DNA from: an archaeon
GTDB taxonomy: Archaea; Thermoproteota; Nitrososphaeria; Nitrososphaerales; Gagatemarchaeaceae
Direction of reading: 5' to 3'
Assembly (NCBI GenBank): GCA_021848045.1
Contig: JAJZNC010000060.1
Location: 62,001 to 126,000, forward strand
DNA length: 64,000 bases
Part shown: positions 5,005 through 62,601 of the stretch, in pieces
Layout: each line of letters begins with the position of its first letter
How positions within the stretch are numbered: position 1 is the first letter of the stretch
Made by a program: the position numbers and the translations under genes
The notes under the pieces: generated by a model
Database searches by the model: none
Told to the model about the DNA's origin: nothing
What the model saw: the letters and a program-made list of their open reading frames with translations, nothing else

Positions 5005-5035
5005 GCTCTCTCACTCCCGCTCGCTGTTGATTTGT

Positions 5036-5096
5036 CTGGTAGGAGCTATCGGCTCACAAGGGTTTGCGAGCGGTTATGGCGAGCCCCACCGCCGAG
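5036..5096 (-). promoter_or_regulatory. Fluoride (crcB) riboswitch
   Basis: Minus strand CGGCGGUGGGGCUCGCCAUAACCGCUCGCAAACCCUUGUGAGCCGAUAGCUCCUACC matches the fluoride aptamer layout (GGCGnUGnnGnnCGCC ... GCUC/GAGC ... GAUnnCnCCUAC); 32 nt upstream of crcB; TATA-like CTTTAAGC just upstream. Confidence 0.88.
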
Positions 5097-5168
5097 GGTT
5101 TTGGACGCTGTCGAGACTTTAAGCTTTTCGAAGGGCCAGGGGTTCGGGCCTACTGGGACGACCCCATC

Positions 5169-19033: not shown

Positions 19034-19325
19034 ACGCGAGCCGGTGGGTGGGCCACGGGGATCTCCTGGGGAAGTTCCTCCCTCGATGCAGGATGCACGA
19101 CGCCGAGAGGCGTAACCGGAGACGGTTGGCTACGGAACAGAAACGAGACCCGTCCCGTCAAATGCGATGAAGGAGCGATCCCGAGGTCGATGGGAACGAG
19201 ATGAAACGGCCGACCCGTGCAGAGCAAGGCCGAACGTGGTCTAAGACGCGCCTGCACCAGGCCAAGGTAGGCCGCTGAGCTGAATCCCGCCTAGAACAAA
19301 AGGAGGACTACGGCCGGCACGCGCC
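19034..19325 (+). ncRNA. rnpB: RNase P RNA (archaeal)
   Basis: GGGGAAGUUCCUCC (CR-I), GGAACAGAAACGAGACCCGUC, GAUGAAACGGCC, GCAGAGCAAGGCCGAAC, AGAACAAAAGGAGGACUAC (CR-V); P4 pairs AAG(U)UCCUCC with GGAGGACUA (bulged U); P1 GCG(A)GCCGG/CCGGC(A)CGC; TATA-like GGCTTAA ~27 nt upstream. Confidence 0.87.
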
Positions 19326-49223: not shown

Positions 49224-49745
49224 GAGACGCCTCGCGAGGGCTGCTTGCCTCTTGGCCAGGCCGGGGTCATCGGCGGCAGTGGAGACAGAGAGCTCGATGA
49301 GAGCCCTCGCGGTGGTGGTAGCCTGCCTCCTGGCTTCCTTCCTGTTGACCGGTGGGATTCTCTCGCCCGCTCGCGCAAACTGGCGACTTGCCCACTGCTA
49401 AAGCTTGTGGGCGCCCTGCCTTGCGCGAACCAGGTGTCCGGACGAGCAGAGGTCTGATTGCCACAGGCGATGACTCGGGCACGCTGTTCCCTCCCTTCGA
49501 GTCTCCATCTGATGACCGCTGTCGACGCGGTGTCGACCGCGGCCGATGCACTCGATCTGTCTAACGTCTGTGGAGTTGTGATCCTCGCACCGAGGTAAGC
49601 TTCCCTTGCTCGGCGTTTGGAAAGCCGGAACGCAGGGCTTCCAAAGCATGAAATTCTAGTCGTGTTCTTCGTCAGAGCGGCCAGCTCGCTGCTCGCTTTC
49701 ACCGAAGCAACTGATAAATCGCGAGGCGAAAGTCTTGCCAGGCCA

Positions 49746-50429
49746 TTGAAGCTCCACTTTGTGATAGGGGAGGCCGCGCTCGAGCTCGTCCCCAAACCCC
49801 TCTGGAGGGAACCCTCGGTGAGGAGAGACGCCGAGCGGCGAGGAGTCGAGCCTGGAAGGATCCTCCTCGACAGGAGCGTGCACCACTCCGCGATGCTGAA
49901 GCTCGAGGACGGGTACAGGAGAGGGAGGCCTGACCTCGTGCACCTTACGCTGCTCAGTGTCACCAGCACGCCCCTGCACCAGGAGGGAAAGGCCAGGACG
50001 TACATCCATACGCTCGGCGACTCGGTGCTCGAGTTTGGGGAAGTTGCAAGGCCCCCGAAGAGCTACGCTAGGTTCCGCAACCTCATGGAGAAGGTGCTGG
50101 CGGAACGGCCCCGAGAGGGCCTTGTGAGGGTACGCGATGCGGACATTCCGCGGCTGCTAGAGTCTACAGGGTTAGACCTCTCTATAGGGCTCTCGGTGCA
50201 GGGTGCGCCAGCGTCTTTTGAGGCCCTCTCGAACGACATCACGGCGACGAAGGATCCGGCGGTCGTCGTAGGCGGGTTCCCCCGGGGGCACTTCCTGGCC
50301 AGCAGCATGAGGGCGTTCGACCGCTTGGCGAGGATCCACGAGAGGCCGCTGGACGCGCACGTTGTCGCCGCGCGCATCGTCTACGAGGTAGAGAAGTCGC
50401 TCGGGAAGGTCGAGCGAGACCAACGGTAA
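49746..50429 (+). CDS. nep1: 16S rRNA pseudouridine N1-methyltransferase Nep1 (TTG start)
   Basis: LKLHFVIGEAALELVPK...ILLDRSVHHSAM...GRPDLVHLTLLSVTSTPL; TATA-like upstream. Confidence 0.88.
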   Translation: MKLHFVIGEAALELVPKPLWREPSVRRDAERRGVEPGRILLDRSVHHSAMLKLEDGYRRGRPDLVHLTLLSVTSTPLHQEGKARTYIHTLGDSVLEFGEVARPPKSYARFRNLMEKVLAERPREGLVRVRDADIPRLLESTGLDLSIGLSVQGAPASFEALSNDITATKDPAVVVGGFPRGHFLASSMRAFDRLARIHERPLDAHVVAARIVYEVEKSLGKVERDQR

Positions 50430-50459: not shown

Positions 50460-50606
50460 GCGGTCGTCGTCCAGAGCACGCCCAAAACGTGTGGAGAGTC
50501 TGGTCTAGAGTCCACCGGACGGAAAAGACTTCAGCCCTCCAAGCTGGCAATTCGCGTCCCCATAAGGCGCGGACCAGAGACCAGGGTTCAAATCCCTGCG
50601 ACCGCA
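50460..50606 (+). tRNA. tRNA-Gly(UCC)-like gene with three inferred introns (about 50475-50498, 50509-50526, 50551-50578)
   Basis: Acceptor GCGGTCG/CGACCGC plus A73; T-arm CAGGG-TTCAAAT-CCCTG; anticodon arm TCAGC-CCTCCAA-GCTGG; D-arm GTCC..TCTGGTCTA-G+GAC after removing inserts; TATA-like A-rich box ~27 nt upstream. Confidence 0.65.
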
Positions 50607-50656
50607 CTCTTATCTACGTTTAAATACGTTCCTCACATCTGTCATTTCGAAGGAAA

Positions 50657-51940
50657 TTGGCCCGTCCAAGGCACAAGCAGCTCCTAAGGGACCCGGATGT
50701 GGAGAGATGGTTCAACAACCTGGCGCGAGGAAGCGTAATCACTGCGGAGGAGCGGCTCCGGCGGCTGGGGCGTTTCTGCAACGCGACAGGCTACACGCCG
50801 CAGACGGTCGTCGATTTCAAGTGGAAGGACCCGGAGGGCTTCGACAAGTTCATGATGGACTATGTTGACGACTCCTTGAAGAAGGGGGAGAAGCCGGCCC
50901 AGGTGAAGAACAACCTCGTCACCATGAGATCGTGGCTGGGTCACTTTGGGCTGAAGATAGAAAGGAGGATCAAGCTGCCTGTCTCGGACTATGTAGACGA
51001 GGTCGTCCCCACAAAGGAACAGCTCGCCCAGCTCCTCAGACATTGCGACACAAGGGCCAGAGCGATTGCTGCGCTAATGGCCTTCTCTGGATTGCGACCG
51101 GAGAGCCTGGGGAACTACTTGGGCAACGACGGCTTGAGGCTGAGCGATCTCCGCGAGCTGGAAGTCAAGAAGAAAGATGGTGCGGTGGAGTTCTCCAAAG
51201 TCCCGACGATTGTTGTAGTCAGGAAGACGCTCAGCAAGGCCCGGCACCAATACTTCTCTTTCCTGCCGGAGGAGGGATGCCAGTACCTGAAGGAGTACCT
51301 CGAGGCGAGATTGAGGGACGGTGAGAAGCTGCAGCCTGACAGCCCATTGATTAGCCACACAAGGGCGAGCAGCAGGCTTTCATTCCTCAGGACTACGAAG
51401 CTCGCTTGGGAGGTGAAACTGGCGATCAAGGCGACGGGGTTCACATGGAGGCCTTACGTGCTGCGGTCGTACTGCGACACAGCCTTTGATATCGCGGAGT
51501 CGAAGGGGTTCATCTCCCACCCCTGGCGGCAGTTCTTCATGGGACACAAGGGCGACATCGAGGCGAGGTACTCGACCAACAAGACGAGGTTGCCACCCGA
51601 CATGATAGAGGAGATGCGAGGAGCCTACAAGCGGTGCGAGGAGCTTCTTCAGACCTCCAAGGGAGAGGCGAGCAGCGAGAAGATTAAGGAGACCTTCAAG
51701 GAACAGCTACTGCTGGTCGCCGGGTTCAAGCCGGAGGAAGTAGAGAAGATGGACCTGACGCAGATAACCAACGAACAGCTCCAGGATATAGTGAGGCAGC
51801 GCTTGCTGGGGGCGATGGTCAACAACGGCTCGAGGCAGAGGGTCATCAACACGGGGGAGGTGGAGCACTACATCCAGCAAGGATGGGAGTACGTTGCCCC
51901 GCTCTCGAACGACAGAGTGATTCTCAAACTCCCAATCTGA
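50657..51940 (+). CDS. Tyrosine recombinase/integrase
   Basis: MAFSGLRPESLGN (catalytic Arg), YVLRSYCDT, FFMGHKGDIEARYST; TATA GTTTAAATAC upstream. Confidence 0.87.
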   Translation: MARPRHKQLLRDPDVERWFNNLARGSVITAEERLRRLGRFCNATGYTPQTVVDFKWKDPEGFDKFMMDYVDDSLKKGEKPAQVKNNLVTMRSWLGHFGLKIERRIKLPVSDYVDEVVPTKEQLAQLLRHCDTRARAIAALMAFSGLRPESLGNYLGNDGLRLSDLRELEVKKKDGAVEFSKVPTIVVVRKTLSKARHQYFSFLPEEGCQYLKEYLEARLRDGEKLQPDSPLISHTRASSRLSFLRTTKLAWEVKLAIKATGFTWRPYVLRSYCDTAFDIAESKGFISHPWRQFFMGHKGDIEARYSTNKTRLPPDMIEEMRGAYKRCEELLQTSKGEASSEKIKETFKEQLLLVAGFKPEEVEKMDLTQITNEQLQDIVRQRLLGAMVNNGSRQRVINTGEVEHYIQQGWEYVAPLSNDRVILKLPI

Positions 51941-51969
51941 GTCGTGTGAAAGAACGACGAGGCGATCCA

Positions 51970-52443
51970 ATGACCAATCGGCCACGGCTGAGCGACAGGA
52001 TAAGACTGCCCGAAGGCTTCAGGTTGATCCAGCGAACAGACATCGAACAGGAATTCAGCTGCGGCGAGCCGCGCATGGACAAGTACCCTCTCCGCCAGTA
52101 CTACGAGTGGAGCCTTGAACCTGAAGCCTTGGTCATTGTCCGAGAGGTCGAAAGTCGAGTCGCCGGCGTTCAATATCTGATGGTGCACGGTGGCTACATC
52201 ATGCTGGAGATGCTCGCGCGGAACAAGCTGCTGCAGTACCCTGGAGCCGGCGGCGACCTCGTGAGGGTCGTCGAGCGCGTCGTAGCTCCCCAGCTAGGAA
52301 TCACCGAAATTCGAATGGAGGCCCTGCAGCATGTTGTGAGGTATTATGACGACGTATTGGGATACGAGGAGAGTGGGAAGTCCTACAGGGATCCTGAGTG
52401 GGGCTTGCTCACGCCTAAGAGGAAATTTTTGCCTCGACCTTAG
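51970..52443 (+). CDS. GNAT-like acetyltransferase
   Basis: LIQRTDIEQEFSCGEPRMDKYPLRQYYEWSLEPEALVIVREVESRVAG. Confidence 0.55.
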   Translation: MTNRPRLSDRIRLPEGFRLIQRTDIEQEFSCGEPRMDKYPLRQYYEWSLEPEALVIVREVESRVAGVQYLMVHGGYIMLEMLARNKLLQYPGAGGDLVRVVERVVAPQLGITEIRMEALQHVVRYYDDVLGYEESGKSYRDPEWGLLTPKRKFLPRP

Positions 52444-52645
52444 ACTTTGAGCGCAACGTCTTCGGGTTGACCAGGTGAGCGCCTTGGTCGGGCTCTGCGC
52501 GCACCTCTGCGATGTACTTCTGGATGTAGGTGCTCTCCCTAAGGTGAGTCTCGATTTCTCTGGACACATTGGTGCCGCTGTCGAGCGCGGCCCGGGTCAG
52601 AGCGGAATAGAGCTCCGGAGTCATCGAGATTGTCGTTTTTATCAT
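52415..52645 (-). CDS. Ribbon-helix-helix protein
   Basis: MIKTTISMTPELYSALTRAALDSGTNVSREIETHLRES. Confidence 0.65.
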   Translation of the reverse strand: MIKTTISMTPELYSALTRAALDSGTNVSREIETHLRESTYIQKYIAEVRAEPDQGAHLVNPKTLRSKSKVEAKISS

Positions 52646-52759
52646 ACTCTAGCCTTACCCTAGTATTCTTATAAACATGCCTGCATTTCATTATCCCGAG
52701 CAAAAGGCTGCGAAGACCGCCTTTGGGGGAAGAATAATACCTGAGACGTCGGAAGCCCC

Positions 52760-53449
52760 TCACGCAGATCGCTCTGCCGGAGGCTCCAATCCCGCTAGAC
52801 TATTGTCCACTTTCCGCGCAGCCTCTCTAAACAAGGCTAGGGAACTGAGTATTTCCTCCTTCACCGGACCCTCGGGTAGTTCCTTCGCTAGATCGAGTAG
52901 ATGGCGATAACGATCTTTCATCCCCCATTTGATGAACCTCTTCTCCCAAAGAATTCCCCCAGTGAGCAATTCAGTAAGTCGGATTTCAGTCCCTTTGCTC
53001 TCACCTTTTTCGAGGTCCTCCCGCATCAGCGACGGGTTGTACTTCAACAACAGATTCCGGATGACCTCCAGCTTCTCGTTCACCTCTCTTTTGTCCTTGC
53101 CATCCAATCGCCTGAAGGTCCTCAGAAGAAGATAGCGGAGGTCGAAGAGTAGATCATAACAGCGGCCCAGTGCTATCGCAATCCGCGTGTTAGTTATGAT
53201 TTCGAGGTCGTCTTCCTCTTCCGCGAGCCTAATGAATCTGATTCGCTCCAGTTCCCGCCTTCCTGCATCGGTAAGTACGTAACGACCTTCTTCGTCTTTT
53301 GAGATGAATTCCGATTCACCAAGCCTCGCCAGCGTGACATAGATTGTTTTGTCGGGCCTTCTTGATTCCCTGACCAGGTCGGAGTAACGTGTTGGCCCCT
53401 TCTTGAGCAATTCTAGAATTGAACCCTTCACTGTGCCGTCTGGCATCAA
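52760..53449 (-). CDS. Winged-helix transcriptional regulator
   Basis: GSILELLKKGPTRYSDLVRESRRPDKTIYVTLARLGESEFISKDEEGRYVLTDAGRREL. Confidence 0.78.
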   Translation of the reverse strand: MMPDGTVKGSILELLKKGPTRYSDLVRESRRPDKTIYVTLARLGESEFISKDEEGRYVLTDAGRRELERIRFIRLAEEEDDLEIITNTRIAIALGRCYDLLFDLRYLLLRTFRRLDGKDKREVNEKLEVIRNLLLKYNPSLMREDLEKGESKGTEIRLTELLTGGILWEKRFIKWGMKDRYRHLLDLAKELPEGPVKEEILSSLALFREAARKVDNSLAGLEPPAERSA

Positions 53450-53453
53450 CCTA

Positions 53454-53510
53454 CCTACGCGTAGGAAGGCTTATAAGGATAACTCTACGCAGTCCCTACC
53501 CATAGGTAGG
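53454..53510. promoter_or_regulatory. Divergent promoter with palindromic TATA flanked by CCTAC-type operators
   Basis: CCTACGCGTAGG (53454-53465), CTTATAAG (53470-53477), CCTACCCATAGGTAGG (53495-53510). Confidence 0.6.
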
Positions 53511-53514
53511 TAAG

Positions 53515-53724
53515 ATGGAACTGCAGCACGAAGAATCCGCGCTAGTCAAAATTCGCTGCGTAAAATCGTGGGCGATCGCGAGCCTAAGGGCTGATTCCCC
53601 GCTAAGAAAAGTGCTAGAACGCGAACTTGACGTCATACGAGTCGACGAGTTTGTTGTAAAATTAGGAGTATGGCTGCAGCTCTTGGAGGTAGAAGAGGAG
53701 GAGAGAGACAATGGCCGGTACTGA
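53515..53724 (+). CDS. Small hypothetical protein
   Basis: 69-aa ORF downstream of divergent promoter. Confidence 0.45.
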   Translation: MELQHEESALVKIRCVKSWAIASLRADSPLRKVLERELDVIRVDEFVVKLGVWLQLLEVEEEERDNGRY

Positions 53725-54016
53725 CCTGCTCCTGGACTGGACTATCCTGTTCGAAGTTGGCTACCTCATCCTCGACGCGTTTGTGAACTTCGACAAGAAG
53801 AATCGGGAAATGACTGCGAGACGGATCGTGGTGGTCTCCCTGCTGTCTCTTCTTGGGTCGTCAATCCTGTTGGTACTCGTCGGACAGGTCAATCAGGACC
53901 TTCCTGCGTTCACGGGCCCTCTTCTAAGCGCCGTCTGGATTGCGTTGCTCTTCTTGGTCTTCCGCGGCTCCTGGATGCTCTATCATTCCATGCTCGCCTA
54001 TTCTGGGCGTCTCTAG
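53711..54016 (+). CDS. Multi-TM membrane protein
   Basis: Three hydrophobic segments; overlaps previous ORF. Confidence 0.6.
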   Translation: MAGTDLLLDWTILFEVGYLILDAFVNFDKKNREMTARRIVVVSLLSLLGSSILLVLVGQVNQDLPAFTGPLLSAVWIALLFLVFRGSWMLYHSMLAYSGRL

Positions 54017-54025
54017 TCGGAGCGA

Positions 54026-54976
54026 GTGGACACCGTGGAGCTGGTGGAAAAGCGGACCTCCGAGACACTCGCTCCGATGGGTGAGAAAGTCGGAAAAATC
54101 GAAGCCATCGCGGACGCCCTGAGGGCTTCCGTCGAGCAGTGGGACAAGAAGGCACCTCAGACTCTTGATGCGATAAAGAAGGCGAGCGACGCAACGAGCA
54201 GGTCTAACGAGTGGATCTTCAACTGGGTGGAGATGGCGAAGAAGGACATGAACCACATCGCCAGCCGGTACGAGGAGATGGCCGAGGCGCACCGAAATGG
54301 CGCGGCGACAATCTACCTGGTTTCAAACAAGCTGGAGTCGCTGGTCGAGAGGGCCTCGATTCTCGAGGAGGCCATAGACGAGCTCCTGGCCGACCGCGCT
54401 GGGGCACCAAAGGAGGATGGGAACGTTGACGGCCCCGGCAGCAAAAGCTTGGTACAAGCGGGGGTGGCGGAATCGAGTCTGGTCGTTGCAGCGGAGAAAG
54501 AGGGTACCGCAACAGGGCGCAAGCAGCTGACCAGGGAGGACGGGCTGGCAAACAGGGAGCGGGGCAACAACGCCCAGCTGATGTTCTGCGAGCAGATTCT
54601 TCGTGGGGCAGGGAAGCTGGTGGACAACAGCATAAAGGAGGGGACCCCGGACTACGTCTTCTACGCTCCCGGGACGCGCAACCCCAGGGGCGTAGGCGCG
54701 TTCAAGGCACTGACGTTAAGAGAGGACGGGACTAGGCAGAGGTGGATACCGAGGAGGAAGGTGCTCGCGGAGCAGCGCATGGCCCTGAAGTTGGGCGTCC
54801 CGCTCATCCTGTTCGTCCTTAATTTCGCGAACGGAAGGATTTGGTCCAAGGTCGTAGCGGTGGGGGAGCTGAAGGAGTTCAGCGGGCTCACCACGCCTCT
54901 GATGATGGTGGAAAACGACACGCAAGCAGAGAAGGCGTGCAAGGAGACGCTGGAGATGGCCCTCCAGCTGCTCTGA
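54026..54976 (+). CDS. Coiled-coil protein with C-terminal nuclease-like domain
   Basis: Helical N-terminus; EGTPDYVFYAPGTRNPRGVGAFKALTLREDGTRQRWIPRRKVLAEQRMALKLGVPLILFVLN resembles PD-(D/E)xK architecture. Confidence 0.5.
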   Translation: MDTVELVEKRTSETLAPMGEKVGKIEAIADALRASVEQWDKKAPQTLDAIKKASDATSRSNEWIFNWVEMAKKDMNHIASRYEEMAEAHRNGAATIYLVSNKLESLVERASILEEAIDELLADRAGAPKEDGNVDGPGSKSLVQAGVAESSLVVAAEKEGTATGRKQLTREDGLANRERGNNAQLMFCEQILRGAGKLVDNSIKEGTPDYVFYAPGTRNPRGVGAFKALTLREDGTRQRWIPRRKVLAEQRMALKLGVPLILFVLNFANGRIWSKVVAVGELKEFSGLTTPLMMVENDTQAEKACKETLEMALQLL

Positions 54977-55271
54977 TGCGCGGACGTGCTTCCGCTGTCA
55001 CGCATTGTCGCGACAGTCTCGCCTGTCCAGCGGTGCTCGCCCGCACACGGCGCCGCACCCTTTTTTATTACTAAGCAAGCCCCTAATCTTGACCATCAGC
55101 ACATCGCGACAACCCGTGCACCCGCACCTCCCAACCCCCTTTGACAGTCCGCCTGTCGCCGGCCGACCGCAGTCGGATAGTTCCGCGTTGCTAGAGTGTT
55201 TTCGTTCAACCCGTCCCTAGAGGCATCCGTTGGCTTCGGCTCGAATAGTCTCCTGAGACACAGCGCGTACG

Positions 55272-55628
55272 TTACCCCCTACGCCTCTCTATCACGACTC
55301 GCTTGCCGTCTATCCTCGCGACCAGCTCCTCGAGTGGCTTGAAGGGGAAGGCGCTGTCACTCACGAACTCGCTGGGGAGGTTGATGCTGTGCCTCCCCTT
55401 TGACACGTAGATCTTGACCTTTGCTTGCGCCGTCGCAGGATTATTACTCGGTAGCTTCAAAAGGTATCCCTGCTTCAATATCTCGAGGTGCCGCCTCGCA
55501 TACAGAGAGGTGCTCGTCTCCTTCATCGAGGTCGTCATGAGGGTGAGCAGGAAACGCGAGAACGACGCAGAGAGGATAGCCTCCCTGATGCTGTCGTCCA
55601 GGGCTAGACTGGGAGCGGATTCTGCCAA
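55272..55628 (-). CDS. Hypothetical protein
   Basis: Coding-like 118-aa ORF. Confidence 0.4.
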   Translation of the reverse strand: MAESAPSLALDDSIREAILSASFSRFLLTLMTTSMKETSTSLYARRHLEILKQGYLLKLPSNNPATAQAKVKIYVSKGRHSINLPSEFVSDSAFPFKPLEELVARIDGKRVVIERRRG

Positions 55629-55830
55629 AGTTTAGATTATTAGTTGCCACTACTCTAACCAGTTTTTCGAGCGGATTAGCCGTGCAGGAGACCGTGAAGT
55701 TGCCCTCGGGAAGGGCGGCGCTTCCGTCTGCAGGGCACCTACCTGGATGAAGAAGCACACCCCCAATTCTCTTGTGATTCGGTGCAAAAGATAAATCGAG
55801 GACCCTCATCCAAAATGTAAGCAGAAGTCT

Positions 55831-56097
55831 ATGAAATCGATACTAGTGGCCGGCGTTTTCCTAGTGGTCGGTCTGGCCTTCTTCTTTCTTGCTCCCGTCT
55901 ATCAAGTTTCGTACCATAACCCTCCGGTCTGCAATTCGGCCAACGCGGTGATATATTGTGGTGCGGTGGTCCCTCCTTCAATCTGGAAGTCACTGAGCTG
56001 CGTTGTCGGCATCGGAGCAGGAGTGATATATGTCACCGGTCCCTTTCCCTCACCTCGGTATCGTTTAGGCGATTTCCTTCTTTATTGTCCCCTTTGA
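55831..56097 (+). CDS. Small membrane protein
   Basis: MKSILVAGVFLVVGLAFFFLAPVYQVS. Confidence 0.45.
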   Translation: MKSILVAGVFLVVGLAFFFLAPVYQVSYHNPPVCNSANAVIYCGAVVPPSIWKSLSCVVGIGAGVIYVTGPFPSPRYRLGDFLLYCPL

Positions 56098-56503
56098 ACC
56101 AAGTCAGCCGATGAATCCTGACAGGCCTTCAAAATTGCCAAAGCCGACATCAACTCGACAGGGAGTTTATGGGGAGCTTTTTGCCCCTATTGCGAGGACG
56201 TTTTGAGAAAATACGTTATCTGACAGACTGAATGAGAATCAGGTCATTGCTGTTGCAACATTCTTGAAGGCACAATGATTGCCACTAACTAACGTTAGTG
56301 AGAAGCGAATCGACATCAAAGACATTTGTCCCGACAAAGTAACGGAACTACTCATTGAAGCGAAAGGCGAGATTGGTTCGAAGGGTCGGACTGAGCGTTA
56401 CAAGGAGAGTTTCTCTCTTGGACAGAAGAAGGGACCGTTTAGGCAAGCAGCTACTATGGGCGGCTCATGCTTTCAGCACTGCCCCCTCGTCTCGAATGCT
56501 TGA

Positions 56504-57439
56504 TTAGGAATCCTTCCAACCGAGGGTGAGGGTCGTGGCGCCGCTATTCCAGCCAGCGGTTGGAGTGCAGAAGGTATCGGGCGTCGATGCGCTCGTAGTA
56601 GCGGTACCGCCACTGGGGCTCGTTGTGTAGGAGACCGAGCCAAAGGCATCTGAGGTCGTTCCGGGCATCTGCGTACAGGTGCTCAAATTGATGGGTTCGA
56701 GGGCGCCCGCATAAGCCAAGGGATACTGGTCAGAAGTGCACTGGTACAGAATTGAATGTGTGCCCGCGGAGGTATCCTTGGCGTTTATCCCGTACCCCGG
56801 TCCGTTATTGATGCAACCGGATATACTTGAGTAGTATGTCATCACCCCTTGAATGGTGTCACCGTTACTTGTGCTCACAGGGGTGGCATAATCGACGATG
56901 CTTCCGATAAGGGCATACGCCGTAAGCCTAAAGCTATTGGAGCAGTCAGTTGAGGTGATGCAGCCATAGGTCAGAAGGGGCTGTATTATGTCCGGGTTGT
57001 TCTGGGTCGAGTAGTACACAAGAGCGTCGAACAGTCCTACTCCTTGGTTCGAACCAAATGATCCGCTTGAGGGATTTGGAGGACGGGTCCATTGATCCTG
57101 GAAGCTGGCAAAATATTGGTTGAGGTTCAACCCACCCTCCGTTCCGAGAGCCTCAGGTCCGCCGGAGCAGCAGGAATAAACCACACTCGTCATAGAGCAC
57201 GGGATAGCCGCGTTCGCCACGACGCTGCCGTTCGGAAAAATAATCGTGCCAGCTGCAGAATTCACAATCGAACCCGACGGTACTTCACGGGCGCAGAACG
57301 ATCCTCCGTCCTGCGAGGATACCGCAGAAGTCGAAAGGGGTGCCGCGATTGCGGTCGACAATCCGCCTGATGTGATTAGGACCGCTAATAGTGCAAACAT
57401 ACCTATGACCTCCAGTTTGGATATTGCCCGGCGCATCAT
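56504..57439 (-). CDS. Exported hypothetical protein
   Basis: N-terminal signal/TM, Thr/Ser/Gly-rich body with Cys. Confidence 0.6.
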   Translation of the reverse strand: MMRRAISKLEVIGMFALLAVLITSGGLSTAIAAPLSTSAVSSQDGGSFCAREVPSGSIVNSAAGTIIFPNGSVVANAAIPCSMTSVVYSCCSGGPEALGTEGGLNLNQYFASFQDQWTRPPNPSSGSFGSNQGVGLFDALVYYSTQNNPDIIQPLLTYGCITSTDCSNSFRLTAYALIGSIVDYATPVSTSNGDTIQGVMTYYSSISGCINNGPGYGINAKDTSAGTHSILYQCTSDQYPLAYAGALEPINLSTCTQMPGTTSDAFGSVSYTTSPSGGTATTSASTPDTFCTPTAGWNSGATTLTLGWKDS

Positions 57440-57559
57440 TGCGTCCGAAAGTCATTGGCCCGGACCTAAAAAGGAAGATTCACAACTGATAACTCAATTG
57501 AATAATCAACTGATAACAATGTTCTGTAAAATCACAGGCAAGCCGCCTCTACTATCTTC

Positions 57560-57946
57560 CTAGGCCTCTCCTGTCTGCCGGTATCCCTTCAAAGTATCTT
57601 CTATGTACCTGAGCAGGATCGGGTCACTACAGGTGAACTTGTAGGTCTTATGCGTTCTATCTCCATGACCTTTTGTGGTGACCTCGGCCACGAGATGAAG
57701 TCGTAGCGACGAATACTGGGGCTCGTACGAGCCTGGTTGGCCGCGAATGGCTCCGATGACTTCACTTGGGTAGAGACGTGTCTTGTGACAAATCTCGGAG
57801 ACAGAAAGCGGGTCCAGGCTGTTCATGAGAGTCCAAAGCACGAGACGCCGCACCCGTCCTCGCAATGCCATGTTAAGCAAGCGACGATCGACATTAGGGT
57901 CGCGCGTGGCATCAGCCATGACAAACCCAGAAGATTGTTCTACCAT
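57560..57946 (-). CDS. Winged-helix regulator
   Basis: RRLVLWTLMNSLDPLSVSEICHKTRLYPSEVIGAIRG. Confidence 0.6.
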   Translation of the reverse strand: MVEQSSGFVMADATRDPNVDRRLLNMALRGRVRRLVLWTLMNSLDPLSVSEICHKTRLYPSEVIGAIRGQPGSYEPQYSSLRLHLVAEVTTKGHGDRTHKTYKFTCSDPILLRYIEDTLKGYRQTGEA

Positions 57947-57972
57947 CCTCGTATTTACGCATTTTCACGAAA

Positions 57973-58443
57973 CTAAAAGCCGAAAAGTCGTGTTATGACT
58001 AACATTGATGAATTTGAACGTAATTGGGTGTGCGAACCTGCCTTGTCGCTGGAGCGGATTATCTCGCGCTTCCTCTTCGAGGGCTCTATCCAGTCCAGCG
58101 CGCGATAGACCCTCTGCACCTTCTTCCTGTTGACGGGCGTGCCGAGCACCCTGGTGAGCTGCGCCGCTATCCTCCTCGTCCCGTAGGTGGGCCTCTTGAC
58201 GGCTATCTCTCTTGCCTTCTCCGTGACAACGGGGTCGAGCGAGACCGTACGCCTCGTCTTCGCGTAGTAGTAGAGGTTCCTGCTCGCGCCTGCGTGGAGG
58301 AGCGCCTTCCCGAGGCTCATTCCAGAGTCAGGCATCGCCCTGATCACCAAGAGCCTCTCCCCCTTTGTCTGCTCCAAAATGTTGGACGAATCGGTTGGAA
58401 CGGCACTAGCATAGCTGGATCGTTGGAAGCACGCTCGAACCAT
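57973..58443 (-). pseudogene. IS3-family transposase OrfB remnant
   Basis: ERLLVIRAMPDSGMSLGKALLHAGASRNLYYY...KRPTYGTRRIAAQLTRVLGTPVNRKKVQRVYRALD; catalytic DDE part absent. Confidence 0.7.
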
Positions 58444-60130
58444 TGAATATGTGCAGCGTCACGCATACCCCGTACCCAGCTATCCAACCTCCCGCGGCCG
58501 CCCAAATTGGCCCGCTTGCTGACCCCGCCACCTGGGTAAGGGAAGGTATTGAAAACGCGATAATAGCGGTGCCGTTATAACCAACCAATTCCGCTTGGTT
58601 GGTGGGGTACTCACCACCGAAGAGAACCGCCGAGTCAGTCTGTATCACGGCAACAGGATTACCTGACACCCTCGCGAAGCTATAGTTCCATAGTAGATTC
58701 CCTGCTGAGTCAAGCAACATGACTCCTGTATCATCTCCAATGGCGATGTGGGAACCGTCCGAAGACATGACCACAGGCTGCACCTCCGTGAAGAGCTGCC
58801 GTTGCCAGAGCAAGGCCCCCCGGGTCCCGTCAAAGTAGAGCAGACTGCCGTTGTCGGCACCGGATACGGTTCCCACCGCCACGCGGGACCCATTGCTCGA
58901 CATTTGGATGAATTTGACATTCGGTTCTTCAGTGTAATTCCAGACCTGCTGCCCTTGTGAATTCAGATAGAACACCCCCTTGTCAGCGTATGTAATCGCG
59001 CTCCCATCGTTCGACATTGCGAATTGACCGATTGAGCCTCGAGTAGGGGAGGTGTAGTTCCAGAGATCGAGTCCATCGCTGTTGAAGCAGATTATCCCGC
59101 TTTGGCCGTTCCCGTTTGTGTATGCCACGACGACTTTCGACCCGTTACCTGACATGGCGACATTCTGCAGGTACGTCCCCTGCGCCGCCGTGAAGTTCCA
59201 GAGCGCCGCACCCCCTCTATTGAAGACCAACAGTTGGCTGCTGCCATTTACTGGGCACAAGCATGGACCCTCCCCGAACGCCTGTCCGTTTCCTGCTGTC
59301 CCGGTGGCAGCGACATAAGAGCCATTGCCTGAAATTGCCACCGAGCCGACGGTACTGCCGTTTGTCACGTGCCTCCAGACCACTCTTGGTTGCCCCTTCA
59401 GGGCTACAAGATACACAGAGCCGTTATACCCACCCGTATCTGACGTTCCGGCCGCGGCGTAGGTTCCGTCAGGGCTTACGCTGAGTGCGTCAACTGTTTG
59501 GATTCCTGATAGATTGGTTGGCGCGGTATTCGGAAACTCGATGCTGAAGTTAAGATAGTTCCAAATCTCCCGATAAATCAGCCAGGTTTCATTCGCGACA
59601 GAGTATGAGTAGAAATCCTGTGCGGTGACAGTGCCCCTGAAATTACCGAGGAAGGGGTTTTCTCCGTAAAAGCTGAAGTTCGAGTTAACCACCGCTGACT
59701 TCTCTGATGTCACAGTTACGCTCTGAGTTAGGTTCGCTATGGTGGAGGGACTTCTCCAAGGTGCGAATGTGCTGTTCACCAGTGAGAGTATCTCTTTCGG
59801 ACCGGTGTAGACGCCCTTAAGTCCTGCCAGGTTGCCCAAACCCAACCAAATCAGGGTCGCATTTCCAGCGTACTGGCCAGCGATTCCTGACACATTGCCG
59901 TCGGAAAGGAGCTGCATATGGTGGGTGAAGTCGCTGAGCACAATGTCCGTCATTGACGTGCTCGCTGACGTAGTCGCGGTTTGAGACTGGGATGATCTCG
60001 GTGACGAATTCGAACTAGAAGGTCGTGACTGCAACAGTAATCCATAACCCGCGAAAGCCACGACAATCAACACGACCATTGCTAGGGTTACCAGCTTTGT
60101 TGAGACTCCAGACCGCCCTCCACGCTTCAA
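58406..60130 (-). CDS. Exported beta-propeller/WD-like repeat protein
   Basis: TM anchor; repeated SxDGSxxAxG...LLWNYS blades. Confidence 0.65.
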   Translation of the reverse strand: MKRGGRSGVSTKLVTLAMVVLIVVAFAGYGLLLQSRPSSSNSSPRSSQSQTATTSASTSMTDIVLSDFTHHMQLLSDGNVSGIAGQYAGNATLIWLGLGNLAGLKGVYTGPKEILSLVNSTFAPWRSPSTIANLTQSVTVTSEKSAVVNSNFSFYGENPFLGNFRGTVTAQDFYSYSVANETWLIYREIWNYLNFSIEFPNTAPTNLSGIQTVDALSVSPDGTYAAAGTSDTGGYNGSVYLVALKGQPRVVWRHVTNGSTVGSVAISGNGSYVAATGTAGNGQAFGEGPCLCPVNGSSQLLVFNRGGAALWNFTAAQGTYLQNVAMSGNGSKVVVAYTNGNGQSGIICFNSDGLDLWNYTSPTRGSIGQFAMSNDGSAITYADKGVFYLNSQGQQVWNYTEEPNVKFIQMSSNGSRVAVGTVSGADNGSLLYFDGTRGALLWQRQLFTEVQPVVMSSDGSHIAIGDDTGVMLLDSAGNLLWNYSFARVSGNPVAVIQTDSAVLFGGEYPTNQAELVGYNGTAIIAFSIPSLTQVAGSASGPIWAAAGGWIAGYGVCVTLHIFNGSSVLPTIQLC

Positions 60131-60571
60131 GAGGAATTCCCCCTAATTTTTAGATGACGAGTCTTTTAGAGATATTGGAGGAATGTTCTCAGTCGGGAGG
60201 TCGGGAGACGCAAAAAGCTTACCGAGAGCAATGAAGGAGTAAGGAGTCGCTTTTCGCATAATCTCAGCGCGGACTCAGCATGCGTGTACATTTTCCATCA
60301 GACGCTCATTACGTCTGTAGCAAACAGGGCAGAAATGAGCCGTTCTCGATACGCGGAGCGGCATTTTCACCCACTTTTGGGAATCTCTGGTTAGTCTGAA
60401 CATGATTGCGTTTCCTGAAATGTTTCGTCGCCACCAGAGGACAATCAAACTATCTTGTGGCAGATCCGGTCGGTTCAGATTCGTTCCCCAATTTTCCAGT
60501 AGGGCGCTTGTTCCGAAAGAAACCAGATAGGATGAGACGGCCCAACTTTCGCGCGTGATGTTCCTTCCTTC

Positions 60572-61816
60572 TCAGGCTCCATCGCTTGTATCCCAATGAA
60601 TTAGGAAGGTTCCGTACCCGTTCCCAACTTTGCTCATTGCGTCTGTTGTTGTCTGTTGATAATTGTTGTTGTACATATAGACCCCGTATCCATCCCCTGC
60701 GCTGTAGTACGAATAGACCCCAGTGTAGTCTCCGGTCAATCCGCCGGGGTTGAAGGCTACGTCTGTGAAATTCCAATCCGAGAATCCAGCCAGTTGATAT
60801 ACGGTATTCCACTCTCCCATGAACGCGGCGTATACAGGCGTGAATGGGTTCGTTGAGTCCCCTATGCTCACCGGGTTCCCGTTCGGCTGGGCGTCGCATA
60901 GTTCGCTTGACGTCCAGTCATTGAGGAATATGTAGTAGCCGTTTCCGCTGTAACCCGTGTATGGCAATTCATTCTCCTCGGTTGATTCCATTTCGTCGCC
61001 TGGATTGACTTCGCCATTAGCATACTGCATGTTAGGACAGTACTGGACGCTGGATTGACACCATGTGTCACTGTATCCCTTACAATAGATTTCAGTCCAT
61101 CCTTCATAGTCAACATAATCATTAGGAGGCGGATTTACGTTGGGAAAAATCGTTGAAATGATGCCCGCCTGGACTATTGTGGCATCACTCTGGGACGCCG
61201 TCTTTTGGTCCGTGAGCCCAACCCACTCGGACAGGTCACACTTGTAGGAAGACGTGCAGGTTATCGTACCTCCTGGCTCCTTTAGTTGAGGAATATACCA
61301 TATCGCATCAGACTCGTAGACTTGCTGACTCGCTCCTGAGTTTCCGGCTATTGCGTAGCCACTCCACTGACAGGAAGAGGAGCAACTTGGGGATATTGAC
61401 TCGGACACAGCAGGAGAAATGTGAGCCCAATTTACCACGTCAGTCGTTGGATTTTCCGAAATCGTGAGAGTATAGTCCGACCCATTAGCGCTTCGAGCGA
61501 GGAAGTTCACAGCTACGCCAGTCCAAGAGACAGTGCAATCCGATCCATACGACCATCCATCGTCGGAACCTGTGTACGTTACACTGAAGCCAGCTGCAAG
61601 TTGTTGGTACTGCGGTGTGGAAACGGCGAAAGAAATCGCCGCTTGAGAGGATACCGCTTCTGGTGCTCTAGTCACCTGGGCTTCTAGAGTCCCCATTGTG
61701 CAATCGACAGACGTCTGCGCATGAACAATCGACATGGAGCTCACTATGCCAATGACAATTGTGACCATTGTGACCGCTGCAAAGAATCTAAGGCCGCTTG
61801 ATGTCGATCCTCTCAT
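60572..61816 (-). CDS. Exported hypothetical protein (peptidase-G1-like look, unverified)
   Basis: Signal-like N-terminus; GWSYGSDCTVSWTGVAVNF...WVGLTDQKTASQSDATIVQAGI. Confidence 0.55.
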   Translation of the reverse strand: MRGSTSSGLRFFAAVTMVTIVIGIVSSMSIVHAQTSVDCTMGTLEAQVTRAPEAVSSQAAISFAVSTPQYQQLAAGFSVTYTGSDDGWSYGSDCTVSWTGVAVNFLARSANGSDYTLTISENPTTDVVNWAHISPAVSESISPSCSSSCQWSGYAIAGNSGASQQVYESDAIWYIPQLKEPGGTITCTSSYKCDLSEWVGLTDQKTASQSDATIVQAGIISTIFPNVNPPPNDYVDYEGWTEIYCKGYSDTWCQSSVQYCPNMQYANGEVNPGDEMESTEENELPYTGYSGNGYYIFLNDWTSSELCDAQPNGNPVSIGDSTNPFTPVYAAFMGEWNTVYQLAGFSDWNFTDVAFNPGGLTGDYTGVYSYYSAGDGYGVYMYNNNYQQTTTDAMSKVGNGYGTFLIHWDTSDGA

Positions 61817-61985
61817 TTCCAGAGTGTTGCTAATGAAATCATTAGGATATAACTCATGCAGAATCTAACATCAGGGATTAATCATCCCTGATTTGTAATC
61901 CGGGATTACAGATACTGGTTTCAGAAGATTCCTCCGGATTGCGCTCGTGCCGAGACACAAAGACAGTCGTCGACTGCTACTGAGC

Positions 61986-62279
61986 TCAGTGACCGTATCC
62001 TTCCAAGGTTACCAACGTCTTGTAGGCTCTCAACCATTCTCTCCCCTTGACCGTCATGGAGTATTTCTTGCGGCCTTTGGACTCGTCTATGACTTGAACA
62101 AATCCCCAAGAAAGCAACTGTCTGAGATAACTGCGTGCAACGTCGACGTTGAGATTGGTGGAGGTCACTATCCTGTTCTGGGTGGCATTACCATGGGTCA
62201 GGATTTCCAGAATCGACGCGAGCATATCTCGCCAAGTTCGTCGCCATGATCTTTGGGCCAACCCGTATACCGGATTCAC
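61986..62279 (-). CDS. Winged-helix regulator
   Basis: MLASILEILTHGNATQNRIVTSTNLNVDVARSYLRQLLSWGFVQV. Confidence 0.65.
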   Translation of the reverse strand: MNPVYGLAQRSWRRTWRDMLASILEILTHGNATQNRIVTSTNLNVDVARSYLRQLLSWGFVQVIDESKGRKKYSMTVKGREWLRAYKTLVTLEGYGH

Positions 62280-62451
62280 AAATTGTAGGCCTGAACTTAT
62301 GGGTTGTGAAATAAATCATTCAGGCTAGGTTGGCCAAGTCACCATTAAGATCTTGTCGTAGTCGGGTGGCGGTGTCGCTTCGTATCATGACGACCCTCTT
62401 TTGGCGACTTTTCGTGCGGGAAAAACGCCTCAATTACGAGCTGTCATGCCA

Positions 62452-62601
62452 TCAAGCGAAATCGCCTACCTTCCTTTGCACCACAATAGCAGCGAACTTG
62501 AACGCAACTACGTCTAAGAACCCTGCGACCGCAACCCTTCCTCTCTCTTTTGCTCCACTTCCAGCAGTACCAGCAACGCGCTCTACCACCATCGTGCTCA
62601 T
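62452..62601 (-). CDS. Small 49-aa hypothetical protein
   Basis: MSTMVVERVAGTAGSGAKERGRVAVAGFLDVVAFKFAAIVVQRKVGDFA. Confidence 0.35.
   Translation of the reverse strand: MSTMVVERVAGTAGSGAKERGRVAVAGFLDVVAFKFAAIVVQRKVGDFA

What the first reader, a model, noticed from the sequence alone, without database searches (positions are those of the whole stretch)
50460..50606. Three-intron tRNA-Gly(UCC) with no canonical intron
147-nt locus with perfect acceptor and T arms typical of tRNA-Gly, plus inserts in the D-loop, at the D-stem 3' strand, and in the variable loop. Inserts carry small GC helices (CACG/CGUG, GUCC/GGAC, CGCG/CGCG) flanked by BHB-like bulges. The D-stem insert 50509-50526 restores G22 and a 4-bp D-stem exactly. 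The exact ends of the first and third inserts are ambiguous by a few nt, and the anticodon loop reads CCUCCAA (C33 rather than U33), so a pseudo-tRNA remains possible. With the Met gene it suggests this lineage tolerates introns throughout tRNA bodies.
Basis: partly seen in the sequence, partly recalled or inferred. Interest (0 to 1): 0.82.

Follow-up and report, generated by a model that had tools for sequence, protein, structure and literature searches.

The report
Three-intron glycine tRNA gene, archaeal
A soil archaeon's only detected glycine tRNA gene for GGA codons is interrupted by three tiny introns, none at the usual site; comparison with relatives shows exactly where they are cut out, making this a real gene and a good new example of a known archaeal oddity.

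Summary
Window 50460-50606 (+) is a tRNA-Gly(UCC) gene with three introns: 50475-50498 (24 nt, position 15/16), 50509-50526 (18 nt, 22/23) and 50550-50579 (30 nt, 45/46). The anticodon loop is uninterrupted. Removing them leaves a 75-nt tRNA identical, base for base, to the spliced product of the same-position gene in a same-genus genome (G007) that has only the 15/16 intron. The gene follows EMG1/Nep1 in relatives across the order, and each intron is missing in some of them, which fixes the junctions. All three fit the bulge-helix-bulge rule (3-4 of 4 central pairs; shuffle P 0.004, 0.0007, 0.001). The genome encodes catalytic and structural splicing-endonuclease subunits. No second Gly(UCC) gene was found in the held 88%-complete assembly. 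C33 is not a pseudogene mark: 34 of 43 distinct orthologous sequences have it. The organism belongs with Ca. Gagatemarchaeum (Thaumarchaeota group I.1c). Three-intron tRNAs are known from Pyrobaculum, so this is a new member of a known kind, with fast intron turnover and clade-wide C33 as the notable points. A 12-kb element with a tyrosine recombinase appears integrated at the gene's 3' end. No RNA evidence was available.

The parts
50460..50474 (+). exon 1 of tRNA-Gly(UCC), positions 1-15 (acceptor 5' strand, T8 C9, D-stem GTCC, A14 G15)
   Evidence: identical in G007 and most orthologues
50475..50498 (+). intron 1, 24 nt, position 15/16 (D-loop); TCC/GGA + bulge AG|A + GCACG/CGTGT
   Evidence: absent in G010, G012, G004; other introns at the same site in many relatives; BHB score P=0.004
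50499..50508 (+). exon 2, positions 16-22 (TCTGGTCTAG, holds G18 G19, A21, G22)
50509..50526 (+). intron 2, 18 nt, position 22/23 (D-stem 3' strand); TCT/GGA + bulge AG|A + GTCC/GGAC
   Evidence: found only in this genome among 43 distinct Gly(UCC) sequences; junctions have no sliding ambiguity, P=0.0007
50527..50549 (+). exon 3, positions 23-45 (anticodon arm TCAGC CCTCCAA GCTGG, C33, anticodon TCC)
50550..50579 (+). intron 3, 30 nt, position 45/46 (variable loop); CTGG/CCAG + bulges CA|A and AG|A + TTCGCG/CGCGGA
   Evidence: 45/46 introns also in G004, G005, G006, G008, G012; absent in G007, G010; P=0.001
50580..50606 (+). exon 4, positions 46-73 (T arm, acceptor 3' strand, A73; no encoded CCA)
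49617..50429 (+). EMG1/Nep1 rRNA methyltransferase gene (start codon uncertain); conserved upstream neighbour of the tRNA
   Evidence: PF03587 E=1e-39; synteny in relatives
50594..50606 (+). proposed attachment core CCCTGCGACCGCA at the tRNA 3' end
   Evidence: exact 13-nt copy at 62521-62533
50657..51940 (+). tyrosine recombinase-like gene of the proposed integrated element
   Evidence: weak PF00589 match, below cut-off; relatives 68-81% identical lie beside the same tRNA in G056 and G041
62521..62533 (+). second copy of the tRNA 3' end: proposed far end of a ~11.9-kb integrated element

Best explanation
This is the organism's working tRNA-Gly(UCC) gene, interrupted by three archaeal bulge-helix-bulge (BHB) introns at 15/16, 22/23 and 45/46. 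The transcript folds so that the tRNA strand 5' of each site pairs with the 3' part of the intron, leaving 3-nt bulges that the (alpha-beta)2 splicing endonuclease cuts after the second base. The exons are then joined by the archaeal ligase RtcB, giving a 75-nt tRNA that reads GGA. Gene, junctions, motif and endonuclease subunits are shown by sequence. Transcription, cutting, joining and charging are inferred.
For: Spliced exons equal those of the G007 orthologue 75/75. Orthologues behind EMG1 exist with none, one or two introns, including an intronless 75-mer in G010. At junctions set by alignment alone, 40 of 54 introns score 6 or more of 8 for BHB pairing, against 4.1% of shuffled and 3.2% of shifted controls; the three window introns score 7, 7 and 8. 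The full precursor's lowest-energy fold shows the three motifs at once. A catalytic endonuclease subunit with the Tyr/His/Lys pattern and a second subunit lacking the His are present. No other match to the mature sequence looks like a Gly(UCC) gene, while Gly(CCC) and Gly(GCC) are present separately.
Against: No RNA data. The central helix in introns 1 and 2 is 3 of 4 pairs, so these are relaxed motifs. C33 breaks the near-universal U33 and is a possible handicap in decoding. The assembly is 88% complete, so a second copy could be in the missing part. RtcB was not searched for.
Confidence: 0.93

Rival explanations
1. A decayed pseudo-tRNA: insertions and C33 have destroyed the gene, and a second intact gene does the work.
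For: C33 and three insertions; the assembly is incomplete.
Against: Exons identical to a relative's, all stems intact; C33 shared by 34 of 43 orthologous sequences; no second copy found; inserts obey the BHB rule.
Confidence: 0.03
2. The interruptions arose with, or are kept by, the integrated element: the element's attachment site brought in intron-bearing tRNA sequence, as proposed for Caldiarchaeum tRNA-Thr, or the introns shield the gene from integration. (This concerns origin, and is compatible with the gene working as in the best explanation.)
For: A recombinase gene starts 51 nt after the tRNA and the tRNA 3' end is repeated 11.9 kb on; recombinases lie beside this tRNA in other genomes too; published model (PMC3293823).
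Against: The repeated core is only the last 13 nt of the tRNA (50594-50606) and includes no intron; the element did integrate despite the introns, unless they came later; relatives carry introns at the same positions in varied contexts.
Confidence: 0.1
3. Assembly or binning artefact joining unrelated pieces.
For: It is a metagenome assembly in 61 contigs.
Against: The locus lies inside a 179-kb contig, with the conserved EMG1 neighbour and S19e nearby; genus-mate G004 has a 90% identical counterpart over the 3' half, with the same 45/46 intron site.
Confidence: 0.01

Closest known systems
Three-intron pre-tRNAs of Pyrobaculum (tRNA-Glu(UUC) of P. calidifontis, tRNA-Pro(UGG) of P. islandicum), cited in PMC4390854
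   Same: three short BHB introns at several positions in one tRNA gene; (alpha-beta)2 endonuclease lineage
   Different: those are hyperthermophilic Thermoproteales; this is a soil thaumarchaeote of group I.1c, a different tRNA, and none of its introns is at 37/38
Caldiarchaeum subterraneum tRNA-Thr(GGU) with introns at 24/25 and 45/46 beside a putative recombinase (PMC3293823)
   Same: multiple noncanonical introns, one at the same 45/46 position, and a recombinase next to the tRNA
   Different: two introns, not three; there the proposed element brought the intron in at the 5' side, here the repeat is at the 3' end and holds no intron
Noncanonical tRNA introns of Thaumarchaeota as modelled in tRNAscan-SE 2.0 (PMC8450103)
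   Same: same phylum and same class of intron
   Different: no three-intron Gly gene from this family was found described in the papers read
tRNA-integrated mobile elements of Thaumarchaeota (PMC6563490)
   Same: integration at the tRNA 3' end with short direct repeats, also in intron-containing tRNA genes
   Different: concerns the neighbouring element, not the introns; the passages read do not name this family

Membership tests
archaeal BHB tRNA intron | removal restores a complete tRNA | tested here: met
   ARAGORN Gly(tcc) only after splicing; 75/75 identity with G007 exons
archaeal BHB tRNA intron | 4-bp central helix between two 3-nt bulges, cut after the second bulge base | tested here: met
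   intron 3: 4 of 4; introns 1 and 2: 3 of 4 (relaxed); all with inner helix of at least 4 bp; shuffle P 0.004, 0.0007, 0.001
archaeal BHB tRNA intron | intronless or differently interrupted orthologues | tested here: met
archaeal BHB tRNA intron | heteromeric splicing endonuclease that accepts relaxed motifs | tested here: met
   only presence tested: catalytic-type (C60/C42, split over two contig ends) and structural-type (C32) subunit genes; activity not testable
archaeal BHB tRNA intron | spliced RNA observed | not testable with these tools
   no transcript data
functional tRNA-Gly(UCC) | acceptor, D, anticodon and T arms intact; A73; anticodon UCC | tested here: met
functional tRNA-Gly(UCC) | U33 (near-universal, not strictly defining) | tested here: not met
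   C33, but shared by 34 of 43 orthologous sequences; C33 is also reported for Sulfolobales tRNA-Cys(GCA) (PMC7668247)
tRNA-targeting integrated element (neighbouring) | direct repeat of tRNA 3' end plus adjacent recombinase | tested here: met
   the recombinase Pfam match is below the curated cut-off
tRNA-targeting integrated element (neighbouring) | empty site in a close relative | tested here: inconclusive
   genes beyond 62533 did not match the relatives' flanks held here

The most novel reading that the evidence does not exclude
C33 in tRNA-Gly(UCC) is the rule across this family and several others of the order, so these archaea either decode GGA with a C33 anticodon loop or convert C33 to U after transcription. 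Together with seven intron positions in one orthologous gene, this would be a clade with unusually heavy tRNA repair at the RNA level.
Probability: 0.1. Interest if true: 0.65.

Novelty: new member of a known kind. Interest (0 to 1): 0.42.

Why it matters
It gives one orthologous tRNA gene, anchored by a conserved neighbour, in which introns at seven positions come and go within a family and even within a genus. That makes intron gain and loss directly traceable, and it places three-intron tRNA genes in a soil lineage rather than only in hyperthermophiles. Standard tRNA finders such as ARAGORN and the Rfam model miss the gene, so tRNA sets of such genomes can look incomplete. The conserved C33 is an open decoding question that sequencing of the tRNA could answer.

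Tried and rejected
My first reading of the BHB motif, from memory, had the bulges on the wrong side of the central helix and matched nothing; the canonical geometry (helix, then bulge, on each strand) fits and was then tested against shuffled and shifted controls. A 15-nt match between intron 3 and another place in the genome (around C51:142012-142025) lies inside an aminotransferase-like reading frame and is taken as chance. A 15-nt match to exon 1 at C32:74919 has no tRNA continuation and is not a tRNA fragment. In the automatic alignment four Gly(GCC) loci were forced to look like Gly(UCC); they are left out of the final counts, but they remain in the 54 introns of the BHB control test, which makes that test conservative. 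No shared words of 11 nt or more link introns 1 and 2 to the own-genome tRNA loci held, so recent copying from those was not seen.

Full report
Identity of the genome. The window is bases 62001-126000 of contig C51 (179 kb) of a 1.6-Mb, 88.5% complete archaeal assembly. Its EMG1 protein is closest (71-74% identity) to those of Thaumarchaeota MAGs AcS1-13 and palsa_1368, then Ca. Gagatemarchaeum stordalenia bog_1369 (61%). AcS1-13 and bog_1369 are members of Gagatemarchaeum in PMC10640624. The organism is therefore a Gagatemarchaeum or very near it (Gagatemarchaeaceae, group I.1c, acidic soils).

The gene. The unspliced 147 nt is missed by ARAGORN and scores only 15.8 bits with the Rfam tRNA model, below the 29-bit cut-off. 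The exons 50460-50474, 50499-50508, 50527-50549 and 50580-50606 make a 75-nt tRNA-Gly(tcc). EMG1 lies 30 nt upstream, and the same EMG1-tRNA pair is found through the genus, family and order. The orthologue of G007 has one insert, at 15/16, and its remaining 75 nt are identical to the window's exons; G010 has no insert at all.

Junctions and motif. Sequence comparison alone fixes intron 2 exactly and leaves three equivalent placements for intron 1 and two for intron 3. The BHB rule picks one of each: AG|A...AG|T for intron 1, AG|A...AA|G for intron 2, CA|A...AG|A for intron 3. Scoring central (4) plus inner (up to 4) pairs, the window introns reach 7, 7 and 8; shuffling each intron reaches these in 0.4%, 0.07% and 0.1% of trials. 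Over 54 introns of the orthologues the mean is 6.1, against 2.8 (shuffled) and 2.2 (shifted). The precursor's minimum-energy fold shows UCC-AGA-GCACG, UCU-AGA-GUCC and CUGG-CAA-UUCGCG arrangements together.

Variation among relatives. Among 43 distinct Gly(UCC) sequences, 8 have no intron, 25 one, 9 two and 1 (this one) three; positions seen are 15/16, 19/20, 20b/21, 22/23, 29/30, 37/38 and 45/46 (one distant sequence has an insert with an unassigned placement near 29). In the genus: G001 and G003 have 15/16 and 37/38; G004 has 19/20 and 45/46; G005 and G006 have 15/16 and 45/46; G007 has 15/16 only (G005 read by eye). The 22/23 intron is unique to this genome in the sample. Three-intron genes recur for Gly(GCC) in G010 and G005, and this genome's own Gly(GCC) gene has two, read by eye at 29/30 and 45/46 (L021).

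C33. Position 33 is C in 34 and T in 9 of the 43 sequences; the T cases are in other families of the order or more distant groups. C33 is thus an inherited feature of this tRNA here. A C33 tRNA-Cys is reported in Sulfolobales (PMC7668247). How it decodes is unknown.

Necessity. Gly(CCC) (C6:35387) and Gly(GCC) (C11:24443) genes exist, and the mature sequence finds no other Gly(UCC). A rough count over long open frames of the window gives 268 GGA among 1446 Gly codons, some of those frames being spurious. By ordinary archaeal wobble rules (established knowledge) GGA needs a UCC anticodon.

Machinery. The catalytic endonuclease subunit is split between contig ends C60 and C42 and aligns well to solved archaeal splicing endonucleases (best 3p1z chain B), keeping the Tyr, His and Lys expected in the active site; the C32 subunit has no His at that place (the assignment of the three residues rests on my knowledge of the family). 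This matches the alpha2-beta2 type reported for Thaumarchaeota, the group rich in unusual tRNA introns (PMC4090602).

Neighbouring element. The last 13 nt of the tRNA recur at 62521-62533, a recombinase-like gene begins 51 nt after the tRNA, and G+C falls from about 0.62 to 0.51-0.58 over the first few kilobases. Homologues of this recombinase stand beside the same tRNA in G056 and G041, and G007 has a different recombinase there. Integration into intron-containing thaumarchaeal tRNA genes is known (PMC6563490). Because the repeated core holds no intron, it gives no support to intron delivery by this element.

Known or new. Up to three introns per archaeal tRNA is established (PMC8450103, PMC4390854). 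The find is a new member of that kind in a new lineage. Of the papers seen here, the Gagatemarchaeaceae genome paper does not mention introns in its main text; that no one has described it elsewhere is not established.

Noticed in passing
50594-62533: Likely integrated mobile element of about 11.9 kb bounded by a 13-nt repeat of the tRNA-Gly 3' end, with a tyrosine recombinase at the tRNA side; contents include an HTH_21-type protein (57973-58443), a PQQ-like beta-propeller protein (58406-60130) and several proteins with no Pfam match.
   Followed up: partly
L031, L035, L111: Recombinase genes sit directly beside the same tRNA-Gly(UCC) in other genomes (two homologous to the window's, one different), so this tRNA looks like a recurrent integration target in the order.
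   Followed up: partly
5033-5102: Fluoride riboswitch (crcB motif) on the minus strand, 42.4 bits.
   Followed up: no
19036-19322: Archaeal RNase P RNA gene, 191 bits.
   Followed up: no
L021 1501-1613: Own tRNA-Gly(GCC) gene appears to carry two noncanonical introns, at 29/30 and 45/46; ARAGORN misreads it as Gly(CCC) with an intron.
   Followed up: partly
L068 1406-1535, L069 1384-1531: Three-intron tRNA-Gly(GCC) genes in two relatives (G010, G005).
   Followed up: partly
L001 1501-1593: Own tRNA-Ile(GAT) appears to have an 18-nt D-loop intron (AG|AGTCAATCTGACGGGCAG|CT); several other own tRNA hits are also longer than normal.
   Followed up: no
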